Of a DNA stretch of 28,523 nucleotides, positions 5,337-27,626 are shown in pieces (the first letter of the stretch is position 1; the number at the start of each line of letters is the position of its first letter). A model generated the notes under the pieces. That model did no database searches, was not told where the DNA came from, and was given only the letters and a program-made list of their open reading frames with translations. The position numbers and the translations under genes were made by a program. Source of the stretch: Bacteroidales bacterium (GTDB lineage Bacteria > Bacteroidota > Bacteroidia > Bacteroidales > WCHB1-69); the NCBI GenBank assembly GCA_017527945.1, contig JAFXPL010000132.1, forward strand, positions 1 to 28,523, written 5' to 3'.

Positions 5337-5381
5337 TAAGTTTAGGGAGTTTAGGGAGTTTAGTAAGTTTAGGGAGTTTAG
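5337..5381. repeat. Five 9-bp units, NNAGTTTAG, in phase with the TPR gene stop
   Basis: The units are TAAGTTTAG, GGAGTTTAG, GGAGTTTAG, TAAGTTTAG and GGAGTTTAG. Because the unit is 9 bp and starts directly after the stop codon, every unit places another TAG (and two units also a TAA) in the reading frame of the upstream gene. The trxB array at 17521-17565 has the same unit in the same relation to its gene. Confidence 0.9.
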
Positions 5382-5420
5382 AGCTAACGTCCAATAGTTA
5401 GTGAAAGGAAAGTGAAAAAG

Positions 5421-7925
5421 ATGAGATTGGATCAACGTGAGTTTGAAAAGAGCCCTGACTACATTCGTGTGCGCGGGGCTCGAGTGCATAATCTGAAAGA
5501 CATTGATGTGGATGTGCCGTTGCACCGGATTGTGGCTGTGGCGGGTGTTTCCGGCTCTGGAAAGTCTTCGTTGGCTCTCGGGGTGCTCTATGCGGAGGGC
5601 TCGCGCCGTTATTTGGAGTCGCTATCCACCTATACGCGCCGCCGCATGACGCAGGCCGCCAAGGCCGATGTCGATGAGATTCTTTATGTGCCTGCCGCTC
5701 TCGCCCTGCACCAGCGGCCTGCCGTCCCGGGCATCCGCTCCACTTTCGGCACGGGCACGGAGCTGCTTAACAGCTTGAGACTCATGTATTCCCGCTTGGC
5801 CGAGCATCGCTGTCCCAATGGGCATTACTTGTTGCCTTCCCTTGCTGTGGCCGCCGGTCAGGAGTGTGTCTGCCCGGAATGCGGCGAGCATTTCTATGCG
5901 CCGGGCGCAGAGGAGCTGGCCTTCAACAGCCAGGGAGCCTGTCGGCACTGCGGCGGCACCGGCATGGTGCGCACCGTTGACAAGGCCTCTCTCGTGCCCG
6001 ATGAGTCGCTCACGATCGACGATGGGGCCGTTGCGCCGTGGAACAGCCTCATGTGGTCGCTCATGACCGACGTGTGCCGCGCCATGGGGGTCCGCACCGA
6101 CGTGCCATTCCGCGAACTGACGGACAAAGAGAAGGATATCGTCTATAACGGTCCTGCCGAGAAGAAACATATTTTCTATAAGTCCAAGACCACGAACGTG
6201 GCCGGGGAGATGGACTTCACCTACTTCAATGCCACCTATACGGTGGAGAATGCGCTGTCGAAAGTGAAGGACGAGAAGGGGATGAAGCGCGTGGAGAAAT
6301 TCCTGAAGGAGGATGTCTGCCCCGAATGCCACGGCACCCGACTGTCGGAGGCTGCCCGGGCACCCAGGCTGCGCGGCATCGGGCTCGACGAGGCCTGCCA
6401 GATGACACTTTCGCAGCTGTCGGAGTGGGTGGACGGAGTGCCCGCGTCGTTGCCTGAAGAGATGCGTCCCATGGCCGAAAGCATTTGCGAGTCATTTCGG
6501 ACTGCCGCCAATCGGTTGATGGACTTAGGGTTAGGGTATCTTACCCTCGACCGAGCCGCCTCCACGCTCTCCACCGGCGAGCGGCAGCGGATGCAGCTTG
6601 CCCGCGCCGTCCGAAACCGCACTACGGGCGTGCTCTACGTCTTGGACGAACCCTCCATCGGTCTGCATCCTTCTAACATCGTGGGACTTAATGGGGTGAT
6701 GCACGACCTCGTGGCCGACGGCAACACGGTGCTGCTGGTTGACCACGACACCCAAATCCTGCAGGAGGCCGATTGGCTCATCGAGTTGGGACCGGATGCG
6801 GGTGCCAAAGGCGGACAGGTCATCGCCGAGGGCACCATCGCCGACATCATACGGAACCCGGGTTCGCGCATAGGCCCTTTCTTGGACCTGAAACGCGAGC
6901 ATGGCTGGAGCGACCCCGACAAGGAACGACTCTTTGAATTTGGCAATATCCACTTGTCAACCAAACAGATACATACAGTGAAGCCGTTGGAAGTCGATAT
7001 TCCCAAAGGACGGCTCACCGTGGTGACGGGTGTGTCGGGATCCGGCAAGACAACGCTGATTCTGGAAAGCCTTGTGCCGGCGTTGGAGGCACTGACCCGC
7101 AAGAAGCGGATGCCGGACCATGTCACGGACATCCTCGCCGAGGGTATCGAGCACGTGAAACTCATCGATGCCACGCCCATCGGCATCAATGTGCGCTCCA
7201 CCGTGGCCACTTACGCGAACGCGCACGACGAGCTGCGCAAAATCTACGCTCGAACCCCTGAAGCCAAGCGGCGCGGTTACAAAGCCGGCGACTTCTCCTA
7301 CAACACCGGTGACCTGCGCTGTCCGGTCTGCGACGGCACCGGCTCCATCAGCCTTGACGTCCAGTTCCTCCCCGATGTCGATATTCCTTGTCCCGAGTGC
7401 CGCGGCTCGCGCTACGCCAAAGCCGCCTACGCGGTCAAGCACACCAACAAGCGCCACGAAAGTGTCTCCCTGCCGGCGCTGATGGACATGGACATCAACA
7501 CTGCCATGGAGTTCTGCCAGGATATGAAGACGGTCTTTCCGAAGCTTCAAGTGCTGCAAAGTCTTGGTTTAGGGTATCTTACGCTTGGTGAGGAGACGCC
7601 GAGCCTGTCGGGCGGCGAGGCCCAGCGGCTGAAGCTGGCCACCGAAATGGGACGTCTGCAGCACGATTCGGTGTTTGTGTTCGACGAACCCACCATCGGG
7701 CTGCATCCTTTGGATGTGCAGACGCTGTTGCAGGTGTTCGACACGCTGATCCGGAACGGGGCCACGGTGGTTGTCATCGAGCACGACTTGGACGTGATCC
7801 GGGCGGCCGACTACATTATCGACATGGGACCGGGCGGCGGCGAGGACGGCGGCCGCGTCGTGGCCGTGGGCACGCCGAGGGATATCGCGAGGAACCCGGA
7901 GAGCATCACGGGGCGGTTCCTGTGA
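5421..7925 (+). CDS. UvrA-like ABC ATPase (class II-like excinuclease subunit A paralogue)
   Basis: An 834-aa soluble twin ABC ATPase of the UvrA family, about 100 residues shorter than canonical UvrA. The ATPase motifs are Walker A GVSGSGKSS (about 42-50) and GVSGSGKTT (about 537-545), Walker B LDEPSIGLHP and FDEPTIGLHP, and signatures STGERQRMQLA and SGGEAQRLKLA. The zinc modules are CPECGEHF/CRHCGGTG (about 151-180), CPECHGTR (300-307) and the larger CPVCDGTG...CPECRGSR (634-664). The region after the first Walker A is short, consistent with loss of the UvrB-interaction insert, as in UvrA2/DrrC-type proteins linked to DNA damage or drug tolerance. The ATG at 5421 is preferred over GTG 5412 because an AGGAA lies about 10 bp upstream of it. 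The gene is monocistronic and convergent with the caspase cluster. Confidence 0.88.
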   Translation: MRLDQREFEKSPDYIRVRGARVHNLKDIDVDVPLHRIVAVAGVSGSGKSSLALGVLYAEGSRRYLESLSTYTRRRMTQAAKADVDEILYVPAALALHQRPAVPGIRSTFGTGTELLNSLRLMYSRLAEHRCPNGHYLLPSLAVAAGQECVCPECGEHFYAPGAEELAFNSQGACRHCGGTGMVRTVDKASLVPDESLTIDDGAVAPWNSLMWSLMTDVCRAMGVRTDVPFRELTDKEKDIVYNGPAEKKHIFYKSKTTNVAGEMDFTYFNATYTVENALSKVKDEKGMKRVEKFLKEDVCPECHGTRLSEAARAPRLRGIGLDEACQMTLSQLSEWVDGVPASLPEEMRPMAESICESFRTAANRLMDLGLGYLTLDRAASTLSTGERQRMQLARAVRNRTTGVLYVLDEPSIGLHPSNIVGLNGVMHDLVADGNTVLLVDHDTQILQEADWLIELGPDAGAKGGQVIAEGTIADIIRNPGSRIGPFLDLKREHGWSDPDKERLFEFGNIHLSTKQIHTVKPLEVDIPKGRLTVVTGVSGSGKTTLILESLVPALEALTRKKRMPDHVTDILAEGIEHVKLIDATPIGINVRSTVATYANAHDELRKIYARTPEAKRRGYKAGDFSYNTGDLRCPVCDGTGSISLDVQFLPDVDIPCPECRGSRYAKAAYAVKHTNKRHESVSLPALMDMDINTAMEFCQDMKTVFPKLQVLQSLGLGYLTLGEETPSLSGGEAQRLKLATEMGRLQHDSVFVFDEPTIGLHPLDVQTLLQVFDTLIRNGATVVVIEHDLDVIRAADYIIDMGPGGGEDGGRVVAVGTPRDIARNPESITGRFL

Positions 7926-7956: not shown

Positions 7957-10206
7957 CTATTGGCATCCATTGTAAAAATGGATGGCCTTCTGGTAGCCAC
8001 GCGCCATCGCCATCATGATCCATTTTTCCGCCTCCTTTGGGTTCCCTTTCACTCCTTCTCCGTTATACAAGCACCATCCGACCATATATTGGGCCGGGGC
8101 ATACCCTTCTTTTGCGCTTTTCTTGAAGCAGGCGTATGCTTTTTTGTAGTTTTTGTTGGTCGGGTCTATGATCCCGTCCTTGTGGCATAATCCAAGCCAG
8201 TAAAATCCCTCGGGGTCTTTGCGTGCGGCGGCCTTTTGCCATAGCGCTACGGCCTGGTTGGTGTCTTTCTCCAATCCGCACCAGCCGTTGAAGTGGAATT
8301 TCCCGAGCTGGGTGCATGCCTTGGGATGTCCTTTTTCGGCAGCCTGCCGGAAATAGGTATAGGCTTGAACGGAGTCTTTCTCCACGCCTAAACCGTTCAT
8401 ACACAGCACACCCATGCCGTAAAGCCCGTCGGCGTTGCCTTGCTTGGCAGACTCATTGTACCAATAATATGCTTGAGTGTAGTCTCTGTTACGTAAAATC
8501 TTGTTCCAATTGTATAGAAACAGATCTCCTGCTTCTGCTTGCGCCTTCGCCTTGCCCGCTTTTGCATTTGCGATAATTGAACTGTCTCTTTGGGGATCCA
8601 CAATTCCTCTGTAGATTTCTGAAGGGTTAAAGACGAGGATTTGTCCATTAATCCTTTCCGTGCGGATGGTGGTGATTTCGGGTGCGGAATAAGATGAAAT
8701 CAGAAAGGCTGTCCTTTCCTTTTCCCAAGATTTTTTTAGTTCGCTGTCCCAATAGGCAATCTCTTTGAAATAGCGTTTGGCCTTGGCGGGATTGGTTTTC
8801 ACCCCTCGCCCTTTGGCATAGCACACCGATAGGTAGTAGCGTCCGAGGTCGCAGTGTTGATAGGCAGCTTCCTGGAAAAGCTTGAACGCGGAGTCGTAGT
8901 CGGGCTGGGGCTTGTAATAATGATACATGCCGATGCGGCAGGCGGCCATTGGGTCTCTGCCCTGTTCATAGGCCATTCGGTAATAATACATGGCCGTGTC
9001 GCTGTTGTTCCGTGATGCGTAGAGGTCCCCTAATTGGACCATGGCGCAAACGTTGCTATCTTGTTTTACTTGATAGTTGAGGCTGTCGAACAGGTTGGGC
9101 TTGATTTTCCAGAGTAATTCATCCTCTCTGAAATTGAAGAATTTACGTTCCGGACGCTGGTTTTTGTCCTTGAATTCACTCTCCACATATTGCCTGATGT
9201 AACGGAAAAGATTCTCTATGGTTACACTATCTGTTGAAAATCGTTTCAGATAGTGTAATTCATTGCCGGAGACGGAATTGACCAGCGCCTTTTCCAACGG
9301 GGTGAAGTCGCGTGTGGGAATGTACGAAGTGTCGTATTCGCTGCTGGAAAAGAAGAATGCGCACTTGTCATCCTTGTGATTCATCGAATCGAGCTTGTTG
9401 ACAAGGGATTTGGCGCAGCATGCATCGACAAAGACGAGAACTTTGGCGCCCTTGGCGGCCATTTTTTTGAAGTAGGCGTTCAAGGTGTCGGCGTCGAGTT
9501 GCGTGTCGGAGGTGACGAGACGGTAGGTCTTGTCGTTTATACGTTCGCCGTGGCTTAGAAGATAGACCATCACCATGTCTTTGTTGTTATGCTTGACCGA
9601 GTCGGAGAGGAGCTTGAGGGAGTGCAGCAGACTCGCTGTCGAGGTCTTTTCGGCGCTGGTGGCCACATCATGCCAGGAAAGCTGGAATTCGTTGTCGGGG
9701 ACCATTTTCTTCTCAATGGAATTGGCCAGATTCAGGAAATTGCCTGTCTGGTCGGGCAGCGAAGGCCAACTGTCCGGGAAGTCGCGGATGCCGACAAGGA
9801 AATAGTGGAGGTTCTCAGGGAAGGTTTCCGTGGTGACTTCGGGCTTGTCCACGGTGTTTTCCTTACCCGCCGGAGCGAGTGTCCCGCGTGGCTGCTCTTC
9901 AAAGCCTTTTGCGGGTTCTTTTGGCTGTTGTCTGTATTTTCCGTATCTATTGATTAGTACATCCACCTTTTCACCGTCGAGGCTAGTTGCGGGAAATTTA
10001 TAGTACTTGTCGCCTTTTTTTAAGACGAAATTGGAATCCGACCGGACTCTGGAGTGGTCGTAAAGCGGAGTCCTATTCGACACGGGTCGCCACTCCAAAT
10101 TGTATTTATATTCGACTTTTCCGCGTACATATATGTACGTTTGCGCGAAGGTTTCTGTCGTGAAGACAACGCATAGCGTGATCAGTAGAAAGTTGATGTT
10201 TTTCAT
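7957..10206 (-). CDS. Secreted caspase-fold (C14-like) protein with Sel1 repeats
   Basis: A 749-aa protein with a signal peptide (1-22, ending FAQ), so it should be periplasmic or surface-exposed. Residues about 23-90 form a small beta-rich domain (VRGKVEYKYNLEWRPVSNRTPL) resembling the FecR/SH3-like heads of other Bacteroidota caspase-family proteins. A linker follows, then a caspase-like domain at about 130-345 with the dyad His219 (LLSHGE) and Cys263 (VFVDACC) and a preceding LVGIRDF strand. Residues about 385-480 and 550-740 contain Sel1-like repeats (AMVQLGDLYASRNNSDTAMY; YGMGVLCMNGLGVEKDSVQA; YMVGWCLYNGEGVKGNPKEA). I chose the ATG at 10206, four bases after the CHASE2 gene, because it gives a clean signal peptide. 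Targets and activation are unknown. The Cys-His pair suggests an active protease, but this is inferred. Confidence 0.88.
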   Translation of the reverse strand: MKNINFLLITLCVVFTTETFAQTYIYVRGKVEYKYNLEWRPVSNRTPLYDHSRVRSDSNFVLKKGDKYYKFPATSLDGEKVDVLINRYGKYRQQPKEPAKGFEEQPRGTLAPAGKENTVDKPEVTTETFPENLHYFLVGIRDFPDSWPSLPDQTGNFLNLANSIEKKMVPDNEFQLSWHDVATSAEKTSTASLLHSLKLLSDSVKHNNKDMVMVYLLSHGERINDKTYRLVTSDTQLDADTLNAYFKKMAAKGAKVLVFVDACCAKSLVNKLDSMNHKDDKCAFFFSSSEYDTSYIPTRDFTPLEKALVNSVSGNELHYLKRFSTDSVTIENLFRYIRQYVESEFKDKNQRPERKFFNFREDELLWKIKPNLFDSLNYQVKQDSNVCAMVQLGDLYASRNNSDTAMYYYRMAYEQGRDPMAACRIGMYHYYKPQPDYDSAFKLFQEAAYQHCDLGRYYLSVCYAKGRGVKTNPAKAKRYFKEIAYWDSELKKSWEKERTAFLISSYSAPEITTIRTERINGQILVFNPSEIYRGIVDPQRDSSIIANAKAGKAKAQAEAGDLFLYNWNKILRNRDYTQAYYWYNESAKQGNADGLYGMGVLCMNGLGVEKDSVQAYTYFRQAAEKGHPKACTQLGKFHFNGWCGLEKDTNQAVALWQKAAARKDPEGFYWLGLCHKDGIIDPTNKNYKKAYACFKKSAKEGYAPAQYMVGWCLYNGEGVKGNPKEAEKWIMMAMARGYQKAIHFYNGCQ

Positions 10207-10210
10207 TTGT

Positions 10211-11437
10211 TTAGTTGTTTTGGTTTGAGATTTGCTGGCACCAGTTATATGCAGGCTTGACGAATGCAAAAGAGAGGAATAGCAGGCTGATGTTTGGAAT
10301 TATGAAGCACTTTGCGGTGAGGAAAAAACAACAGAGAAGGACACCGCATTCGAAAAGAATCACAAGAATAGGGGATAGAATCACATGAAAAGCGGATAGA
10401 AAGATTTTGATTAGTTCGCACTTGGGATTGCAACGTTTTTTGAGGAAATTGAAAAAGATGACACATAGATAGTATAGGAAAGAGAATAAAACGAAAAGGA
10501 GGAAATTTACACAGCAACGGCAAAAAGTATAGGGGTAAGAGGAGTTTTTTTTGTCTCCATTATGGAGGGCCAAAATCGAGGCCAGTTCGTAGGCGATGAT
10601 TTTTATGCCGGAAATCTGGCAGGAGTTCCCAGTGTCCCGGAACGGCGCTATGTGCATGTCGAAAGGGGAGTTGGTTTGGCCTATCAGGACAATGCTGTTG
10701 GTGTCGATGTTTTTCAAGGAAGACAAGGAAGTTGAGTCTGAGATGTCGAATTTGTTGAGGAACATGTACGATGTGTCGAATGTCTTTGCTCTGAAATTGG
10801 TGTAGAAATGTTCGGGCAATTTGCAGGTGTCCACACCTAACATCATGGCGGCTTTCAATGAGATTCGGGGAAGTGATTCATGGGTGCGGACATATTCGCC
10901 AAAGCCATAGAACGCGGCCGATCCGAAGGGGATGTCCAGCTGTTTCGTGAAGAAGCTGTGACAAATGGAATCGTCTTTCCCCATGCTTCTGACCACAACA
11001 AGCTTTGTGGAATCCTTGATGCGCTCAAGAGTACTGCTCAGGATTTTGTTTTGAACGGTGTCGAAGCTTTTGGTGTCCTGAAACAGGACGTCGATGCAAA
11101 TAAGTTTCGGGTGTTGGTCCGCCACGGCTTGGATGACTTCGGCAAAATTTTTCCGGCTATAGAAAGTCTCCCTCATATCCACAATCACGATGTCGTCAGC
11201 GGTGATGTCGTTTTCGTAGTGGCTGTTTTGAGTGTCAAAGAAGAGATTCATGTACCATTCGTGGTTGATGGATTCGATTAGCTTGCCGATCAAAGGGCAA
11301 TTTCTGACCGCTTTCCCAACCCCCAATAGGGCACAAGCACCTGCAATTACCAGTAGGGGCGATAGAAATCTACACAATTTACTATGCTTGAATCGGCATT
11401 CGGAATCCTTGTCGTGGTTAGTTGTCTGTTTTTCCAT
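10211..11437 (-). CDS. CHASE2-domain membrane sensor without cytoplasmic output
   Basis: A 408-aa protein with a CHASE2-like layout. One membrane helix lies at about 25-43. A large extracytoplasmic domain (about 45-300) carries the family-like features IVIVDMRETFYSR, LICIDVLFQD, SIVLIGQTNSPFDMHIAPF and GIKIIAYELASIL. Three C-terminal helices follow (about 307-333, 343-375 and 376-392), and the protein ends soon after. CHASE2 proteins usually carry a kinase, cyclase or caspase-like output domain, and none is present here. The next gene, 4 bp away, encodes a secreted caspase-fold protein, and the upstream gene ends 15 bp before this start. The coding sequence is visibly more AT-rich than its neighbours, and the helical part is unusually rich in cysteine. 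The domain call comes from pattern recognition, not a search. Confidence 0.75.
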   Translation of the reverse strand: MEKQTTNHDKDSECRFKHSKLCRFLSPLLVIAGACALLGVGKAVRNCPLIGKLIESINHEWYMNLFFDTQNSHYENDITADDIVIVDMRETFYSRKNFAEVIQAVADQHPKLICIDVLFQDTKSFDTVQNKILSSTLERIKDSTKLVVVRSMGKDDSICHSFFTKQLDIPFGSAAFYGFGEYVRTHESLPRISLKAAMMLGVDTCKLPEHFYTNFRAKTFDTSYMFLNKFDISDSTSLSSLKNIDTNSIVLIGQTNSPFDMHIAPFRDTGNSCQISGIKIIAYELASILALHNGDKKNSSYPYTFCRCCVNFLLFVLFSFLYYLCVIFFNFLKKRCNPKCELIKIFLSAFHVILSPILVILFECGVLLCCFFLTAKCFIIPNISLLFLSFAFVKPAYNWCQQISNQNN

Positions 11438-11452
11438 ATCGTAGAATTTTGG

Positions 11453-13444
11453 TTATTCCTCCCCAATCATCGCCCGCAGCTCCTCCACGGTGAAGCAGAA
11501 GCTCTTCGCGGCGGTTGAGACGGTTTTCTTGTTTTTCTTGGGCTTTTGCGGGACTCGGTAACGATAACACAGTCCGTAGCCCGCGCTGATGTACAGGTCG
11601 ATTATTTCGCGGATGTCCTCGCCGCCGGCCGCCATGGAGGACTCTAACTGCCAGCGGATTTCGTCGTCGTTGACCATGTCGAGCGGGAATCCTTCTGCCA
11701 TGGTGTAGTAATAGATAACCATTCCATTTTCAACGCCCATCGAGTCGAGGGTCGTGAACTCGTCCGTACGGGCAGGGCATTCCCGGTTGAGCACAGGCAA
11801 GACATCCTCCAAGATGGTTTTCTGCAGCTCCGCGCGGATTACTTCGGACGGCACCGCCAACGCAGAGTCGATGTCGCTCGTGGAGTAGGCGAGTGTCCGG
11901 ATCTGCCCGTCCGGGAATCGCCAGTGCAGGGTGATGCCAGCATCCAATTCGGCCAAGGTCGCCAGTGTGGTGGTGTCGATGTCGAGGAGGTCGCGGTAGT
12001 CTTTTTCCCCGACGGAGCTGAGGAAGAGTTCCGCCATGTCGGGGGCTACCGAGTAGTGGTAGTGGAGGACGCTGTTTCGGAAAGCCACGCTGTCGAGGGT
12101 GCCAAAGTCGAGCTCGATCGTGAGACTGTCGCGGTTGAACCCCTCCATTTCCCGCAACAGCTGTTCCTTTATCATCTGCCGCTGGATGCGGGCCGTGACC
12201 CCGACGTAGGTGCTCTCTTCCATTTCCGGACTGTTCCGGATCTCGTCCGACGGGATGAAGATGTCGATGGTGCGGCGGGTGTCCGCCTCCATGTAGAGCA
12301 GCCGGACCCCTTTCAGGCGCTGGTAGAAGCGTTCGAGGGTGAGGATTCCGCCGTCATACACAGCGGAACTGCCGATGAACCTCTCGTAAGCCCGTCGGAG
12401 GTTCACGGCGGTGCTTCTTCGGATGAGCTCCTCGTTTTCGGCAGAACTCCCTTCGCCGTAAAGCTCCGGCGCCAAGGTGTAGGTGTATTGCAGAACCTGG
12501 TCGGTATATTCGACATCGGTCAGGCGAATGTCTGGGTCAGGACTCAATTCGTCCTTTTTTTGGGCAAGCATAAACTCTTGATGGACAATCTGTTTCTGAA
12601 TAAAGGCATCGATTTGGGCATCGGTGGCGGGCTTGATCTTGTTGGAGGTTTTCATCCAGTCCTCCAGTTCGGCGTGGGGGACGAAGAGGTGGTCGATTTC
12701 GTTGCGGAGGGTGTCGCGGAATCGGAACAGGAGGTGAATGTCTGCATTCACATAGATTTCAAACAAGTCAAGGTTCGTCTGGAAGAAGCTCTTGTACTGC
12801 AGTTTGAACGTCGGGAGAACCATCTCCACATGTTCCCGCTTGTAATTTTTGTCTTCAAAGAAGGTGTAGAGGTAGAATAGGGTGTCGCCAGTGAGATAAA
12901 CAGTGTCGATGCGGGTGTGTTCGTCGATCCGGTTGGGCATATTCCGGTTGTTGCTGTTGTTGATATAGCGTATGTTTTCCCGGCCCTGCCATTTCTTGCT
13001 GTTTTTGTAATCGGGTTTGGTGCGGTCGGCCCAAATTTGCCGGGCTTCCGAAGGCGAGTAACGGAGTGTGAGCCGCGCGTCGGAACTGTCGATGGTGATG
13101 TCATAGACAAAACCGCCCTTGATGTCGCCCAGCTTTTCATACAGGTAGTTGAACTCCACGGGCTCCAGCCGGTAGCGGAGGCGGTCGGCGAAATACCGCC
13201 GCAGGTCCGCACTGTCGCGCCCTTCCGCGAACAACTTCCTCAGGGTGAGGTCGAAATGCAGGTAGCCGGACTTGTAGCTCAGCTTGTTGACCGTCCAGGT
13301 CAGCTCATGGCGGGGGCAGTTCCGCTTGTTGTTCATGCCCGCCACCTTGGCATACATCTCCCGGTCGATGGGCTGCGCCTGCAGCGTGCCCGCGAGCAGC
13401 GCTGCGACGAAGAGGAGGCAAGTTGTTGCTTTGACGGGGTTCAT
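11453..13444 (-). CDS. Secreted protein with five divergent repeats, function unknown
   Basis: A 663-aa exported protein (signal peptide 1-24, ending LQAQ) that I do not recognise. Internally it repeats about every 110-130 residues. Each unit has a strand pair of the type L/V-x-Y-x-Y-T-L and later an amphipathic strand plus a polar 'S/H-x-E-I/L' end. Examples are VNADIHLLFRFRDT..VPHAEL (about 232-260), VLQYTYTLAPEL with LKGVRLLYMEAD..IPSDEI (317-402), VLHYHYSVAPDM with LDAGITLHWRFPDG..STSDI (459-525), and MVIYYYTMAEGF with ISAGYGLCYRYRV..TVEEL (575-656). A first, more divergent copy covers about 42-135. CP pairs (NCPRHE, ECPART) start the first and last units. It leads the cluster with the CHASE2 and caspase genes, 15 bp upstream of the former, so a shared envelope role is plausible but inferred. 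Confidence 0.8.
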   Translation of the reverse strand: MNPVKATTCLLFVAALLAGTLQAQPIDREMYAKVAGMNNKRNCPRHELTWTVNKLSYKSGYLHFDLTLRKLFAEGRDSADLRRYFADRLRYRLEPVEFNYLYEKLGDIKGGFVYDITIDSSDARLTLRYSPSEARQIWADRTKPDYKNSKKWQGRENIRYINNSNNRNMPNRIDEHTRIDTVYLTGDTLFYLYTFFEDKNYKREHVEMVLPTFKLQYKSFFQTNLDLFEIYVNADIHLLFRFRDTLRNEIDHLFVPHAELEDWMKTSNKIKPATDAQIDAFIQKQIVHQEFMLAQKKDELSPDPDIRLTDVEYTDQVLQYTYTLAPELYGEGSSAENEELIRRSTAVNLRRAYERFIGSSAVYDGGILTLERFYQRLKGVRLLYMEADTRRTIDIFIPSDEIRNSPEMEESTYVGVTARIQRQMIKEQLLREMEGFNRDSLTIELDFGTLDSVAFRNSVLHYHYSVAPDMAELFLSSVGEKDYRDLLDIDTTTLATLAELDAGITLHWRFPDGQIRTLAYSTSDIDSALAVPSEVIRAELQKTILEDVLPVLNRECPARTDEFTTLDSMGVENGMVIYYYTMAEGFPLDMVNDDEIRWQLESSMAAGGEDIREIIDLYISAGYGLCYRYRVPQKPKKNKKTVSTAAKSFCFTVEELRAMIGEE

Positions 13445-13597: not shown

Positions 13598-15292
13598 CTA
13601 TTTCGTGCCGATGAGCACCCCCGACACGTTCCAGGCACTGAAGTAGGAACCTTCGCGCTGCCCCTGCGGAATGGCGACGGTGATCGTGTGTTCGCCCGGG
13701 GTAAGGCCCGTGAGGTCGAAATAGACCGGCTGCGTGGCGGTGCCGGGACACCAGCCCGAACGCGAGTAGTCCGATGAGGAGAGCCCGTTCCAGAAATTGC
13801 CCGACGCGGGGTTATAGACCCGGAAAGTGCCGCAGTCGCTGCGCCACGGCGTGTGGCGGAAGCGCGGCTCCCCGTCGATGAGGATCACGTTCTCCTTCGG
13901 AACGAACTCGTCGCCCGTGTCCCAGCCGCCGTGCCCCGTGCTGATGTAGCGCAGACGCAGCGAGGTGAGCCCCTCCGGCACCGTGAACGTCACCGTCAGG
14001 CTGTCGCTGCCGAAAAGCGTCCCGTAGTTCTGCCCCGACATCTCCATCACGTTGCAGGTGTTGAAGAGCGGCAGCGTCCAGCAGTGCTCGTCGGCGTTGC
14101 CCGACCATTCGTAGCTCTCGGGGTAGGCCTTCAGGTCGAGGGTGACCTTGTGCCCGCCGGCGTCGTAGTTGCCGATGAACGCCCCGATATAGACATCGCC
14201 TTGCAGATACTGTCGCAAGTCGCTGACATCCTGCTTGTAGTAGGCGGCGTCCTCCCACTCTTTGTCATTGAGGGAGCGGTACTGGTTGAAATGGTGTACG
14301 CCGAACGGGGTGAAGAAGCGGACGAGCTCCACCAAAGGCGTGTAGTCCTTCTCCAACCGGATGCCCTGGTATTGTCCTCCGTTCTTGTCGGTGAAGACAG
14401 GTAAGACACCTACGCTGTCAATCAGCGCGTTGAGGAAATTAACCTTCTGCGAGGCGGGAATCACGAAGATGGAGCCGGTGCGGTCGTAAGCGTCGCCGTT
14501 GGACTGCTCAGTCAGCTCCGCGAAAATCTGATAATGAGGCGGTAACTGTTTGAGGTTGAGTCGTTTCAGAATGATGGTGCCGTTGGAGTAGGGGAGAACG
14601 GTGTCGAAAGGGACGACGCGGGATTTCTCCAATTTCGGGTTGAAGCAGATCTGCGCGTCGTGGAAGACGGGGATGGTGATGACGAGTTTCTCCTTTTCGA
14701 GGTTGCCGAGGGCGCGACGGTCGGTGTATTGCCCGAGGTTGTCGGGAATGATCGGTTCGATGTCCTTGTATTTCTCCACGGAAGCCAGCCGTGTGGTGGT
14801 GTTGCCGTTGCGGACAATCTGCACGACAACGCCGGGGAGGTTGCCGAACGAGGCGGAAGGCGTACCGCGATGGTTCTTCAGATCCTCCGTGACCCAGAAC
14901 TCCATTTTGTTGGAAAAGAGGCTGGTGGTGTATTTCTTGCAGTTATAGCCGTGGAGTTTCTCGGTTTTCTCCAGCGTGTATTCGTTGCCGTTGTTGAGGC
15001 TGTAGCCCGTGTAATATTTCTCATCCTTCGAATAATGAAGCTGATAGAAAACCGTGTCGCGCTTGTAGTCGATGTAGGTGAAGTGCTTCGCGACACCGGG
15101 GATGGGGTTGGCCTCCTCCGGGTCGAAGGAGCTGATTAGGGCGGCGTTCTGGTTCGGGGAGGTCGCCACGAGGGTGCGCGACGTGTCGGAACTGCCGTCG
15201 GAGAAAGTCTCATAAATCAGCCAGCGCTGGGCATTGGCGGCGAAGACGGCCATCATGGCGACGGCGAAAAGGGTTAGTGCTCTTTTTGTCAT
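13598..15292 (-). CDS. GLPGLI-like domain fused to PNGase F-type peptide N-glycosidase
   Basis: A 564-aa exported protein (signal peptide 1-22, ANAQ). Residues about 23-215 resemble GLPGLI proteins: YKRDTVFYQLHYSKDE, then LHGYNCKKYTT, TEDLKN and the signature-like GNLPGVVVQIVRNGN at 150-164. Residues about 225-564 resemble PNGase F. GDAYDRTGSIFVI (266-278) aligns with the WDR segment holding catalytic Asp60, VRFFTPFGV (324-332) with the following FITPYWV segment, TGDEF (459-463) with the segment holding Glu206, and SGWCPG (512-517) with the conserved GWCPG. This suggests release of N-glycans from glycoproteins in the periplasm or at the surface. The Glu118 equivalent is not obvious. It has its own promoter and is separated from the next minus-strand gene by 153 bp. 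Domain calls are from memory of the families. Confidence 0.82.
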   Translation of the reverse strand: MTKRALTLFAVAMMAVFAANAQRWLIYETFSDGSSDTSRTLVATSPNQNAALISSFDPEEANPIPGVAKHFTYIDYKRDTVFYQLHYSKDEKYYTGYSLNNGNEYTLEKTEKLHGYNCKKYTTSLFSNKMEFWVTEDLKNHRGTPSASFGNLPGVVVQIVRNGNTTTRLASVEKYKDIEPIIPDNLGQYTDRRALGNLEKEKLVITIPVFHDAQICFNPKLEKSRVVPFDTVLPYSNGTIILKRLNLKQLPPHYQIFAELTEQSNGDAYDRTGSIFVIPASQKVNFLNALIDSVGVLPVFTDKNGGQYQGIRLEKDYTPLVELVRFFTPFGVHHFNQYRSLNDKEWEDAAYYKQDVSDLRQYLQGDVYIGAFIGNYDAGGHKVTLDLKAYPESYEWSGNADEHCWTLPLFNTCNVMEMSGQNYGTLFGSDSLTVTFTVPEGLTSLRLRYISTGHGGWDTGDEFVPKENVILIDGEPRFRHTPWRSDCGTFRVYNPASGNFWNGLSSSDYSRSGWCPGTATQPVYFDLTGLTPGEHTITVAIPQGQREGSYFSAWNVSGVLIGTK

Positions 15293-17520: not shown

Positions 17521-17565
17521 CTAAACTTCCTAAACCTCCTAAACTTCCTAAACTTCCTAAACTTC
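17521..17565. repeat. Five 9-bp units (GAAGTTTAG on minus) including the trxB stop
   Basis: On the minus strand the last 9 bases of trxB, GAAGTTTAG (Glu-Val-stop, 17557-17565), are followed by four more copies, one of them GAGGTTTAG. Each copy repeats the TAG in the trxB frame. The array looks like an iteration of the gene's own 3' end, with the same unit as at 5337-5381. Confidence 0.92.
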
Positions 17566-18498
17566 CATCAAGAACCGCGACGCCTCAATGCCGGCCATGC
17601 TGCCGGTGCCGGCGGCGATGACGGCCTGGCGGAAGACGGGATCCTGCACGTCGCCCGCGGCGAACACGCCCTCAATGTTGGTCTTCGTGCTGTCGGGCTT
17701 CGTGACGATGTAGCCTTGCTCGTTCATATCCAATTGTCCCACAAAGAGTTCGGTGGTCGGCACCACGCCGATGGCCTCGAACACGCCATCGACCTCCAGG
17801 GTGCGCTCCTCGCCGCTCTGCGCGTGTTTCACCTTCAGCCCCGTCACCTTCTTGATGAAACCCTTCTGCTCGCCAGTGATTTCCACGGGCACGTGGCTCC
17901 ACACCACCTCGATGTTCGGGGTGTTGAGCACGCTCTTCTGCAGGGCCATGGTGCCCCGGAACTGGTCGCGGCGGTGCACGATATAGACCTTCGTGCAGAG
18001 CTGCGACAGGTAGAGGGCGTCCTCCAAGGCCGTGTCGCCGCCGCCGATCACCACGGTGGTCTTGCCGCGGAAGAAGTTGCCGTCGCAGGTGGCGCAGGTG
18101 GAGACGCCGAAGCCGCGGAACTCCTCCTCGCCGGGCAGGTGCAGCCAGCGCGCGCTCGCGCCCGTGGCCACAATCACGGTCTCGGCCACCACTTCCTCGC
18201 CGTCATCCAACAGGCAGTGGAACGGACGGCTGCTGAAATCGACCTTCGTCACGCTCTTGGGCTGCATCTCCACGCCGAGCTTCAGCGCCTGCTCGCGCAG
18301 CTTGTCCATGATGACCGGGCCGCCCGCGCCGCCCGGGAACCCCGGGAAGTTCTCCACTTCGTTGGTGATGGTCAGTTGGCCGCCCTGCTGCATGCCCTCA
18401 ATCAGAAGAGGCTTCAGGTCGGCACGCGCCGTATATACGCCGGCCATGTAGCCCGCAGGACCCGAACCGATGATAAGGCATTTCACGTTTCTTGACAT
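17557..18498 (-). CDS. trxB: Thioredoxin-disulfide reductase
   Basis: A 313-aa cytoplasmic flavoprotein that passes electrons from NADPH to thioredoxin. FAD-binding GSGPAG is at 11-16, the redox-active CATC at 135-138 lies within GVSTCATCDGNFF, NADPH-binding GGGDTA is at 152-157 followed by HRRDQFR (175-181), and the C-terminal FAD motif is VFAAGDVQD. Length and motif order are typical of bacterial low-molecular-weight TrxR. The ATG at 18498 is preceded by a -7-like box at 18553-18560. It is convergent with prmC, and the 3' ends are separated only by one TTTGGCTGTTGGC element and the 9-bp array. Confidence 0.97.
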   Translation of the reverse strand: MSRNVKCLIIGSGPAGYMAGVYTARADLKPLLIEGMQQGGQLTITNEVENFPGFPGGAGGPVIMDKLREQALKLGVEMQPKSVTKVDFSSRPFHCLLDDGEEVVAETVIVATGASARWLHLPGEEEFRGFGVSTCATCDGNFFRGKTTVVIGGGDTALEDALYLSQLCTKVYIVHRRDQFRGTMALQKSVLNTPNIEVVWSHVPVEITGEQKGFIKKVTGLKVKHAQSGEERTLEVDGVFEAIGVVPTTELFVGQLDMNEQGYIVTKPDSTKTNIEGVFAAGDVQDPVFRQAVIAAGTGSMAGIEASRFLMEV

Positions 18499-18571: not shown

Positions 18572-18645
18572 GTTTCAAGTTTCAGGATTCAGAATTCAAG
18601 TTTTAACCACCTGAACTTGAAACTTGAAACTTGAAACTTGAACCT
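18572..18645. repeat. AACTTGA heptamer array with inverted partner
   Basis: Four tandem AACTTGA units (about 18613-18641) lie just downstream of the stop of the minus-strand WG-repeat gene. About 30 bp away the opposite orientation appears as GTTTCAAGTTTCAGG (18572-18586), nearly the reverse complement of the CCTGAACTTGAAAC end of the array. The transcript could fold into a long stem. The same heptamer is seen at 1-17 and once near 1224. Confidence 0.75.
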
Positions 18646-21331: not shown

Positions 21332-21526
21332 TTGGCTATTGGCTATTAGCCTTTAGCCAACAGCTAACAGCCAACAGCTAACAGCCAATAGCCAACAGCT
21401 AACAGCTAACAGCCAACAGCTAACAGCCAACAGCTAACAGCCAACAGCTAACAGCCAACAGCTAACAGCTAACAGCTAACAGCTAACAGCTAACAGCCAA
21501 CAGCTAACAGCTAACAGCTAACAGCC
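21332..21526. repeat. CAGCTAA/CAGCCAA heptamer array with a 13-bp inverted repeat
   Basis: From 21361 there are 23 gap-free 7-bp units of the form (C/T)AGC(C/T)AA, ending in a partial unit at 21526. Before them the opposite orientation occurs: 21332-21344 (TTGGCTATTGGCT) is the exact reverse complement of 21383-21395. The units carry TAA in a 7-bp period and so place stops in all three plus-strand frames. A single antisense-oriented copy (TTTGGCTGTTGGC) lies after the prmC stop near 17507-17519. Confidence 0.92.
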
Positions 21527-24107: not shown

Positions 24108-24172
24108 TGGGTTAATGGGGTGATGGGTTAATGGGTTAGTGGGGTAATGGGTTAAGGGGTTAAGGGGTTGGT
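24108..24172. repeat. CCC(M)TTAA 7-9-bp array abutting the LuxC-like start codon
   Basis: On the minus strand the array reads CCCCTTAA, CCCCTTAA, CCCATTA, CCCCACTAA, CCCATTAA, CCCATCA, CCCCATTAA, CCCA and then ATG. It fills the gap between the malic enzyme stop and the next gene and leaves no room for a Shine-Dalgarno. A related CCCTTAA/CCCAATAA array abuts the glyS ATG. Confidence 0.85.
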
Positions 24173-26794: not shown

Positions 26795-27517
26795 ATGAGA
26801 TTGAAAAGAACGATTGCGATAGTACTCTTTGTTGTGGCGATGGCCGCGCAGGCCCATGCGCAGTACCAGTTCGGCGTGCCCAACCTGTTGAAATACGACA
26901 AGAAGCCCTTTCATTTCGGATTCACCTTGGGCTATAACCTCTTCGACTACCGCATCTCCTCAAAGCCGGATTTGGCGGAGTATGACTCGCTGATGGTCAT
27001 CAACACCCATGCCATGAGCGGATTCAGCCTCGGCATCGTCACCAACCTGCGCCTCGGCAAGTACTTCGACCTCCGTTTCATCCCCGGCCTCTCCTTCGGC
27101 GACCGGTACATCAACTATACCATCCGCTACGGCGACGGCTCGGAGCTTGTCACCGCCAAGAACGTGGAGTCCGTCTATCTCGAAATGCCTATCCTGTTCA
27201 AGTACAAGTCGTCCCGGATGCTTAACAACATCAGGGCTTACGTGCTCGCCGGCGGGCAATATACCTTCGACATGATCTCCGCCAAGAAGAAAAAGGCTCC
27301 CGAGAACGGTGAAGTCGTGCTCAAACTCAACCCTCACGACGTGCAGGCGCAGGTCGGCGTCGGCTTCGACTTCTACTGCACCTACTTCAAGTTCACCACC
27401 GAGCTCAAGATGTCGTTCGGCTTCCTCAACATGCTCGTCCCCGAAGACAACATGTACGCCACCAGCGTCACCTCCCTCAAAGCCAAAAACCTGCAAATCT
27501 CCTTTATCTTTGAGTAG
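26795..27517 (+). CDS. PorT-like outer-membrane beta-barrel protein (type IX secretion)
   Basis: A 240-aa protein with a signal peptide ending AHAQ (about residue 23), then YQFGVPNLLKYDKKPFHFGFTLGYNLFDYRI. Alternating hydrophobic and aromatic strands end in the barrel-type C-terminus LQISFIFE. Size and the N-terminal 'FHFGFTLGYN' pattern fit the PorT/SprT proteins needed for the Bacteroidota type IX secretion system, though generic porin-family barrels are similar. A loop with KKKKAPENGEV separates two strands. It follows the sugar kinase on the same strand after 64 bp. No recognised T9SS C-terminal sorting domain was noticed on other proteins in the window. Beta-barrel localisation is more certain than the PorT identity. 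Confidence 0.75.
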   Translation: MRLKRTIAIVLFVVAMAAQAHAQYQFGVPNLLKYDKKPFHFGFTLGYNLFDYRISSKPDLAEYDSLMVINTHAMSGFSLGIVTNLRLGKYFDLRFIPGLSFGDRYINYTIRYGDGSELVTAKNVESVYLEMPILFKYKSSRMLNNIRAYVLAGGQYTFDMISAKKKKAPENGEVVLKLNPHDVQAQVGVGFDFYCTYFKFTTELKMSFGFLNMLVPEDNMYATSVTSLKAKNLQISFIFE

Positions 27518-27557
27518 AACTTAGAACTTAGACATAGAACTTAAACTTAGACTTAGA
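27515..27557. repeat. AACTTAG array starting at the porT-like stop codon
   Basis: Directly after the TAG stop (27515-27517) come AACTTAG, AACTTAG, ACATAG, AACTTAA, ACTTAG and ACTTAG. Every unit ends in TAG or TAA. This array is joined directly to the different array that precedes glyS. Confidence 0.85.
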
Positions 27558-27558
27558 A

Positions 27559-27626
27559 CCCTTAACCCAATAACCCTTAACCCAATAACCCTTAACCCAA
27601 TAACCCTTAACCCAATAACCCAATAA
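27559..27626. repeat. Four 15-bp units CCCTTAACCCAATAA plus a half unit before glyS
   Basis: Four perfect copies at 27559-27573, 27574-27588, 27589-27603 and 27604-27618 are followed by CCCAATAA (27619-27626), two bases and the glyS ATG. The 15-mer is a dimer of CCCTTAA and CCCAATAA, related to the array before the LuxC-like gene. Confidence 0.95.

What the first reader, a model, noticed from the sequence alone, without database searches (positions are those of the whole stretch)
7957..13444. CHASE2 sensor and secreted caspase-fold protein in one cluster: possible envelope proteolysis module
Three minus-strand genes are spaced 15 and 4 bp apart behind one TATCTTTG box: an exported five-repeat protein, a CHASE2 membrane protein and an exported caspase-like/Sel1 protein. 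CHASE2 domains normally sense outside the cytoplasm and pass the signal to a fused cytoplasmic output, and bacterial caspase-like proteins are mostly cytoplasmic. Here the sensor has no output domain and the protease has a signal peptide, so both active parts would sit in the periplasm. I infer that the CHASE2 protein activates, tethers or inhibits the caspase, with Sel1 repeats and the five-repeat protein giving binding specificity. A defence, stress or self-lysis role is possible but unproven.
Basis: partly seen in the sequence, partly recalled or inferred. Interest (0 to 1): 0.8.

Follow-up and report, generated by a model that had tools for sequence, protein, structure and literature searches.

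The report
Membrane sensor paired with exported caspase
A Bacteroidales-type bacterium carries a membrane sensor next to a caspase-like enzyme that is probably exported to the same side of the membrane, and looser versions of this pairing recur in related bacteria, which suggests a protein-cutting switch that works outside the cytoplasm.

Summary
Three minus-strand genes lie 15 and 4 bp apart: an exported repeat protein, a stand-alone CHASE2 membrane protein (PF05226, 2e-11) and a probably exported caspase-fold/Sel1 protein with His219/Cys263 intact. The repeat protein is probably not part of the module: 0 of 11 genomes carrying a relative match CHASE2.

The CHASE2-caspase link is real but loose. 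Of 45 CHASE2 loci read, 11 have a caspase-fold gene (C14 or CHAT) within about 6 kb. In the class sample this is 8 of 40 genomes against 0.89 expected. CHASE2 without an output domain is normal there (42 of 45 ORFs at most 455 aa).

The steadier partner, beside CHASE2 in 33 of 45 loci, is an exported protein that weakly resembles MtxA, a CHASE2-cyclase neighbour elsewhere. Its first domain is what the window's caspase carries at its own N-terminus, so the adaptor looks fused to the protease.

I read it as CHASE2 holding or gating a caspase on the outer side of the inner membrane. The anatomy is well supported; the mechanism is inferred.

The parts
7957..10206 (-). caspase-fold gene, 749 aa, probably exported, with C-terminal Sel1 repeats
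   Evidence: Pfam C14 3.8e-9 and Sel1 9.2e-40; caspase fold by model comparison
10144..10206 (-). probable signal peptide, residues 1-21, predicted cut before Gln22
   Evidence: simple rule passed by the window protein and 6 of 6 relatives P0010-P0015; 'AQ' kept in the same six; the 19-residue hydropathy rule marked no segment in this protein; no trained predictor run
9931..10143 (-). small beta domain, residues 22-92, homologous to the first domain of the separate exported MtxA-like partner
   Evidence: profile-profile 92% vs at most 0.61% for 34 other segments; 75% and 64% vs at most 0.88% for 74 others after trimming signal peptides from the partner profile; 94% and 60% vs at most 0.89% for 74 others with the partner set gathered without any window seed; strands 31-71 in the model at pLDDT about 60-74
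9097..9840 (-). caspase-fold protease domain, residues 123-370
9550..9552 (-). catalytic His219 codon
   Evidence: SHG motif, column invariant in A2
9418..9420 (-). catalytic Cys263 codon
   Evidence: DAC motif, column invariant in A2
7972..9093 (-). Sel1/TPR helical repeats, residues 372-745
   Evidence: 7 Pfam Sel1 stretches; helices in the model
10211..11437 (-). stand-alone CHASE2 membrane protein, 408 aa, no output domain
   Evidence: PF05226 2e-11 and no other family
11303..11380 (-). first transmembrane segment, residues 20-45
   Evidence: hydropathy
10535..11209 (-). CHASE2 sensor domain, residues 77-301, outside the cytoplasm
   Evidence: Pfam boundaries
10250..10531 (-). C-terminal transmembrane region, residues 303-396, read as three segments, then a tail of about 12 residues
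   Evidence: hydropathy stretches 303-333, 340-393 and 377-396; helices 308-335, 341-377, 381-406 in a low-confidence model
11453..13444 (-). exported repeat protein, 15 bp upstream; co-directional but judged not part of the module
   Evidence: 0 of 11 genomes bearing a relative match CHASE2; in L001 (90% identical) it lies just after a PNGase F-like gene and is followed by a gene on the other strand

Best explanation
The CHASE2 protein and the caspase form a receptor-protease pair that works on the outer face of the inner membrane. The CHASE2 protein sits in the membrane with its sensor domain outside (shown by profile and hydropathy only). The caspase is exported, and its first domain, related to the first domain of the MtxA-like protein that stands beside CHASE2 in other genomes, docks it onto the CHASE2 domain (inferred from gene fusion and neighbourhood). 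When CHASE2 meets its signal, the docked caspase is released or activated and cuts substrates bound by its Sel1 repeats, perhaps after Arg or Lys because the residue two before the catalytic Cys is Asp, as recalled for metacaspases (inferred; the fold comparison does not separate it from legumains). CHASE2 thus needs no cytoplasmic output domain in this arrangement. The biological purpose, envelope stress or turnover of envelope proteins, is a guess.
For: Domains, topology and dyad. Caspase-fold gene near CHASE2 in 11 of 45 loci, 10 of them backed by Pfam matches; 8 of 40 class-sample genomes within 6 kb against 0.89 expected. In L020, L022 and L107 a caspase directly abuts CHASE2 on the same strand. 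39 of 40 CHASE2 genomes have C14 or CHAT somewhere against 22 of 40 controls without CHASE2. Export-like N-termini in 15 of 18 caspase-fold ORFs of the loci against 73 of 202 background ORFs. Partner next to CHASE2 in 33 of 45 loci; its first domain matches the caspase's first domain; L023 has the order CHASE2, partner, caspase as separate genes. Among close relatives, three CHASE2/caspase hit pairs share a longest-contig length (36822, 25552, 5258; 3 of 9 CHASE2 hits and 3 of the 6 hits that cover the whole caspase).
Against: 34 of 45 CHASE2 loci have no caspase-fold gene within about 6 kb (7 of the 45 have a flank under 4.5 kb), so the CHASE2-partner pair often stands without one. One CHASE2 genome (G1161) has neither C14 nor CHAT. 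C14 alone is only mildly enriched (28 against 18 of 40, P 0.04), and the counts are not corrected for kinship. In L087 both caspases are on the other strand. The domain match rests on 32-41 aligned columns; in a single-profile search only the window protein, P0010 and more weakly P0011 of the 7 family members stood out. The CHASE2 model is poor (pLDDT 52), so no docking surface could be examined. Pfam and fold comparison also fit legumain (C13). Binding, export and activity are untested. No second window-type locus was read directly: searches found none, and 0 of 104 genomes of the family of G001 matched (which had no positive control).
Confidence: 0.45

Rival explanations
1. The caspase acts upstream of the sensor: it cuts an envelope protein or the adaptor, and CHASE2 senses the product and signals inward through its C-terminal transmembrane helices to an unlinked cytoplasmic protein.
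For: CHASE2 normally signals across the membrane (established knowledge); CHASE2 and its MtxA-like partner stand without a caspase nearby in most loci read; the C-terminal transmembrane region is kept in the window protein. Some subgroups have recurrent other neighbours that I did not identify, for instance a divergent ORF of 868-916 aa beside CHASE2 in L084, L085, L099 and L103.
Against: The adaptor-like domain is fused to the caspase itself in the window family; the cytoplasmic tail is only about 12 residues. A search for a recurrent cytoplasmic partner was not made.
Confidence: 0.25
2. A defence or self-killing executioner: phage or damage is sensed at the envelope and the caspase kills the cell.
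For: Bacterial caspase-like proteins are discussed as cell-death proteins in the literature (PMC3501461, PMC7475262, passages seen).
Against: No PADLOC match for any of the three proteins; no match of the window CHASE2 in phages or plasmids; several CHASE2 loci lie among genes that look housekeeping by eye.
Confidence: 0.13
3. The genes are neighbours by chance and work separately.
For: Most CHASE2 loci read have no caspase nearby; the pair has lower G+C (0.48 against 0.56 for the window), so it may be a recent arrival.
Against: 8 genomes against 0.89 expected within 6 kb; 4 bp spacing here; domain fusion; three shared contig lengths among close relatives.
Confidence: 0.12
4. All three genes, with the repeat protein, form one proteolysis module.
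For: 15 and 4 bp spacing on one strand.
Against: 0 of 11 genomes with a relative of the repeat protein match CHASE2; its neighbour in L001 and L002 is the PNGase F-like gene.
Confidence: 0.05

Closest known systems
MtxA and the CHASE2-adenylate cyclase gene of magnetotactic bacteria (PMC4439547, passages seen)
   Same: A secreted protein of about 35 kDa with an N-terminal part, an Ig-like domain and a TPR domain, encoded next to a CHASE2 gene. The partner in the loci read has an export-type N-terminus, a conserved beta-rich-looking middle and a TPR-like C-terminus and also lies next to CHASE2. MtxA_C matches fall on the CHASE2 neighbour in G540, G677 and G1169, one of 22 partner proteins gives MtxA_C at E 0.034, and the partner profile matches the MtxA chain 4z29_A at E 0.044.
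   Different: All sequence matches are weak, the MtxA_C ones below the family cut-off, and a shorter partner profile did not list MtxA. In the window the first domain is fused to a caspase, and CHASE2 has no cyclase.
LysM-FecR protein with CHASE2 histidine kinase, the biofilm operon of Burkholderia (PMC5192318, passages seen)
   Same: An exported protein encoded directly beside a CHASE2 receptor.
   Different: Output is a histidine kinase and response regulator. Pfam FecR was not among the families listed for the partner here.
Metacaspase-CHASE2 fusion of Trichodesmium erythraeum (PMC3501461, PMC2853523) and EACC2-caspase proteins with a variable C-terminus that can be CHASE2 (PMC8195603); passages seen
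   Same: A caspase-fold domain coupled to CHASE2; [quoted passage not shown]
   Different: There it is one protein, and PMC3501461 places the Trichodesmium caspase in the cytoplasm; here two proteins with the caspase probably exported to the sensor side.
Exported caspase-fold proteases of Bacteroidota such as gingipains and C11 proteases (recalled, no call)
   Same: Caspase-fold cysteine proteases that leave the cytoplasm.
   Different: No CHASE2 partner known to me; different families (C25, C11).

Membership tests
CHASE2 receptors (PF05226) | Profile match over the curated cut-off | tested here: met
   44.4 bits against 26.3, E 2e-11
CHASE2 receptors (PF05226) | N-terminal and C-terminal transmembrane segments around the sensor domain | tested here: met
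   hydropathy segments 20-45, 303-333, 340-393, 377-396
CHASE2 receptors (PF05226) | Fused cytoplasmic output domain (usual, not defining) | tested here: not met
   no other Pfam domain, about 12-residue tail; 42 of 45 ORFs in related loci are at most 455 aa
Peptidase C14 (caspase/metacaspase/orthocaspase) | Profile match over cut-off and caspase fold | tested here: met
Peptidase C14 (caspase/metacaspase/orthocaspase) | His-Cys dyad | tested here: met
   His219 and Cys263, invariant in 9 rows
Peptidase C14 (caspase/metacaspase/orthocaspase) | Distinct from C13 (legumain) | tested here: inconclusive
Peptidase C14 (caspase/metacaspase/orthocaspase) | Proteolytic activity and cleavage preference | not testable with these tools
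   needs purified protein
MtxA-like CHASE2 partner | First domain homologous to that of the exported partner | tested here: met
   with 34, 74 and 74 control segments under 1%; short alignment of 32-41 columns
MtxA-like CHASE2 partner | Ig-like middle and MtxA_C | tested here: not met
   the window protein has the caspase domain there and no MtxA_C or Ig match at E 1, so it is not filed as an MtxA
Known anti-phage defence system | Match to a PADLOC model | tested here: not met
   0 matches for the three proteins at E 1

The most novel reading that the evidence does not exclude
CHASE2 in Bacteroidales-type bacteria is a docking receptor whose output is a protease on the sensing side of the membrane: an MtxA-like domain, free or fused to a caspase, links sensor and enzyme, so the signal never crosses the membrane. 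The same adaptor-sensor pair would serve cyclases and kinases in other phyla.
Probability: 0.3. Interest if true: 0.8.

Novelty: new variant of a known kind. Interest (0 to 1): 0.55.

Why it matters
The factors that CHASE2 recognises were called unknown in a paper seen here (PMC5192318), and the purpose of bacterial caspases outside the cytoplasm is open. A gene fusion that joins a recurring CHASE2 neighbour to a caspase gives a direct, testable guess for the CHASE2 binding partner, and a possible case of proteolytic signalling that stays in the envelope. It may also tie together three scattered observations in print: MtxA beside CHASE2-cyclase, LysM-FecR beside CHASE2-kinase, and CHASE2-metacaspase fusions.

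Tried and rejected

Clean empty site: not shown. In G001 the PNGase F-repeat pair lies on a contig of 102190 bases and the uvrA-like gene on one of 98889.

Limits of counts: the 47 neighbourhood loci are 6 from the order search and 41 of the 43 matches listed by the class search, the other two being repeats of the first six; L123 and L124 were dropped from the 45 because the local CHASE2 model did not match them (L123 holds two C14-like ORFs and a sub-cutoff CHASE2 match). Seven of the 45 have a flank under 4.5 kb. Local caspase and partner profiles were iterated four times on the same loci; the first partner profile had the window's own N-terminus among its five seeds, so I repeated it without: the same 35 ORFs in 33 loci came back and the domain match stood. 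L023's caspase has no Pfam check. Of the 18 caspase-fold ORFs, two sit in L123; the three that fail the signal rule are L022_3 and L108_3, cut at the locus edge, and L098. The signal rule is lenient (73 of 202 background ORFs pass). The eight genomes with a caspase within 6 kb were picked by me from the tables. The 40 control genomes are the first handles by number, G881 to G925, that were not among the 40 matches; that they belong to that class sample is inferred from the numbering, only 20 non-matching genomes were listed by handle, and one control is only 0.5 Mb. Kinship was not corrected for.

Full report

The repeat protein is a neighbour, probably not a partner. Eleven loci with a relative were found. 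None of those 11 genomes has a CHASE2 match. In L001, 90% identical, the gene follows the same PNGase F-like gene within a few bases and is followed by a gene on the other strand; L002 also has the PNGase F-like gene in front, and the other nine loci gave no PNGase F-like match. A TATCTTTG box precedes the gene in the window, but such matches are common by chance.

How CHASE2 behaves in related bacteria. In a sample of the class of G001, 40 of 395 genomes match CHASE2 at E 0.001 and 39 exceed the family cut-off. With a profile of the window family, 5 of 393 genomes of the order and 0 of 104 of the family matched. I read 47 neighbourhoods; 45 hold CHASE2 by a local model. In 42 of 45 the ORF is 364-455 aa, too short for an extra output domain; the other three are 544-552 aa. 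So the missing output is a property of the group, not of this gene. In 33 of 45 loci the gene next to CHASE2 encodes a protein with a shared first domain, 146-395 aa by stop-to-stop length; 32 of 35 such ORFs have a signal-peptide-like start against 73 of 202 background ORFs.

Caspases near CHASE2. A C14 or CHAT ORF lies in 11 of 45 loci: C14 in L020, L022, L023, L087, L088, L107, L121 and CHAT in L018, L092, L098, L108. In the 40 class-sample genomes, Pfam matches put one within 6 kb in 8, with 0.89 expected. In L020, L022 and L107 the caspase directly abuts CHASE2 on the same strand; in L087 both caspases are on the other strand. Across whole genomes, 39 of 40 CHASE2 genomes have C14 or CHAT (28 and 36 of 40) against 22 of 40 controls (18 and 14 of 40); the C14 difference alone is slight (P 0.04), and kinship was not corrected for. 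Fifteen of 18 caspase-fold ORFs in these loci have export-like starts. Against the link, 34 of 45 loci have no such gene nearby. In a tree of 53 CHASE2 proteins, caspase-linked ones are scattered; the window clade joins L023, but on long branches that the program flags as possibly false.

The fusion. A profile of the partner's first domain was compared with segments of the three window families. The N-terminal segment of the caspase family scored 92% probability, the best of 34 others 0.61%. With signal peptides trimmed from the partner profile, the two N-terminal segments scored 75% and 64%, the best of 74 others 0.88%; with both sides trimmed the direct comparison gave 67%. Because the window's N-terminus had been one of five seeds when the partners were gathered, I repeated the gathering without it: the same 35 ORFs came back, and the segments scored 94% and 60% against at most 0.89% for 74 others. 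The aligned part is short, 32-41 columns, and in a one-profile scan only P0010, the window protein (E 0.0077) and, weakly, P0011 (0.19) led the list. L023 shows CHASE2, partner and caspase as three separate genes in that order. In the window the partner's first domain and the caspase are one protein.

What the partner is. Its C-terminus looks like TPR. The MtxA_C family, searched in the 40 genomes at a lenient limit (E 5), gave matches below the family cut-off in 22, and in 3 of 14 named control genomes; in G540, G677 and G1169 the best match is the CHASE2 neighbour, while in the other 19 it lies elsewhere. G540 and G677 may be close kin. The full partner profile matched the MtxA chain 4z29_A at E 0.044 over its N-terminal part, but a shorter profile did not list it. 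The MtxA paper, of which I saw passages, describes an Ig-like and a TPR domain and a gene with adenylate cyclase and CHASE2 similarity next door. I therefore call the partner MtxA-like, with moderate confidence.

Print. I searched for CHASE2 with caspase (7 papers), with CHAT domain (0), with FecR (3), 'CHASE2 domain' with Bacteroid- (5), CHASE2 with periplasm and protease (3), with MtxA (1), and orthocaspase with signal peptide (3) and caspase, metacaspase, Bacteroid- and periplasm (7). I saw these listings and passages of seven papers, plus one whole section of PMC3501461. They describe CHASE2 fused to caspases, with the caspase placed in the cytoplasm for Trichodesmium, and CHASE2 receptors beside exported proteins; none of the passages I saw describes an exported caspase paired with a stand-alone CHASE2. 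The library lacks most subscription papers, and I did not read the supplements.

Verdict. The module is real as a gene pair and as a recurring theme; its steady core is CHASE2 plus an MtxA-like exported protein, with the caspase an occasional, here fused, addition. Docking and control of the caspase by CHASE2 are the most economical reading but are inferred.

Noticed in passing
window 13598-15292: Exported-looking protein with both PNGase F domains (PF09112 7.5e-50, PF09113 4.4e-48) and a GLPGLI-like stretch, upstream of the repeat protein and next to its relatives in L001 and L002.
   Followed up: partly
window 5412-7925: UvrA-like ABC protein of 837 aa converging on the caspase gene with 31 bp between the ORF ends; 89-91% identical copies occur in G001, G003 and G004.
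   Followed up: partly
window 5339-5381, 17521-17566, 18614-18642, 21355-21526, 24108-24169, 27515-27626: Short tandem arrays with units of 6 to 24 bases; some spurious ORFs run through them.
   Followed up: partly
L109 7206-9073 and L111 3865-5762: Two tandem MtxA-like partner genes next to one CHASE2 gene.
   Followed up: no
genomes: Many CHASE2 genomes list a CHAT ORF of about 1350-1730 aa; in G984, G1101 and G1169 a long CHAT ORF lies near CHASE2, in G1153 and G1081 some 18-26 kb away. A dedicated CHAT partner is possible.
   Followed up: no
L084, L085, L099, L103: A divergent ORF of 868-916 aa beside CHASE2 recurs in these four loci; not identified.
   Followed up: no
phylum sample, L024-L053: CHASE2 frames listed from the wider phylum sample are mostly 700-900 aa; several have an upstream gene of about 470 aa. 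Six of ten tested neighbours gave no Pfam match at E 0.01, five of them 467-476 aa.
   Followed up: partly
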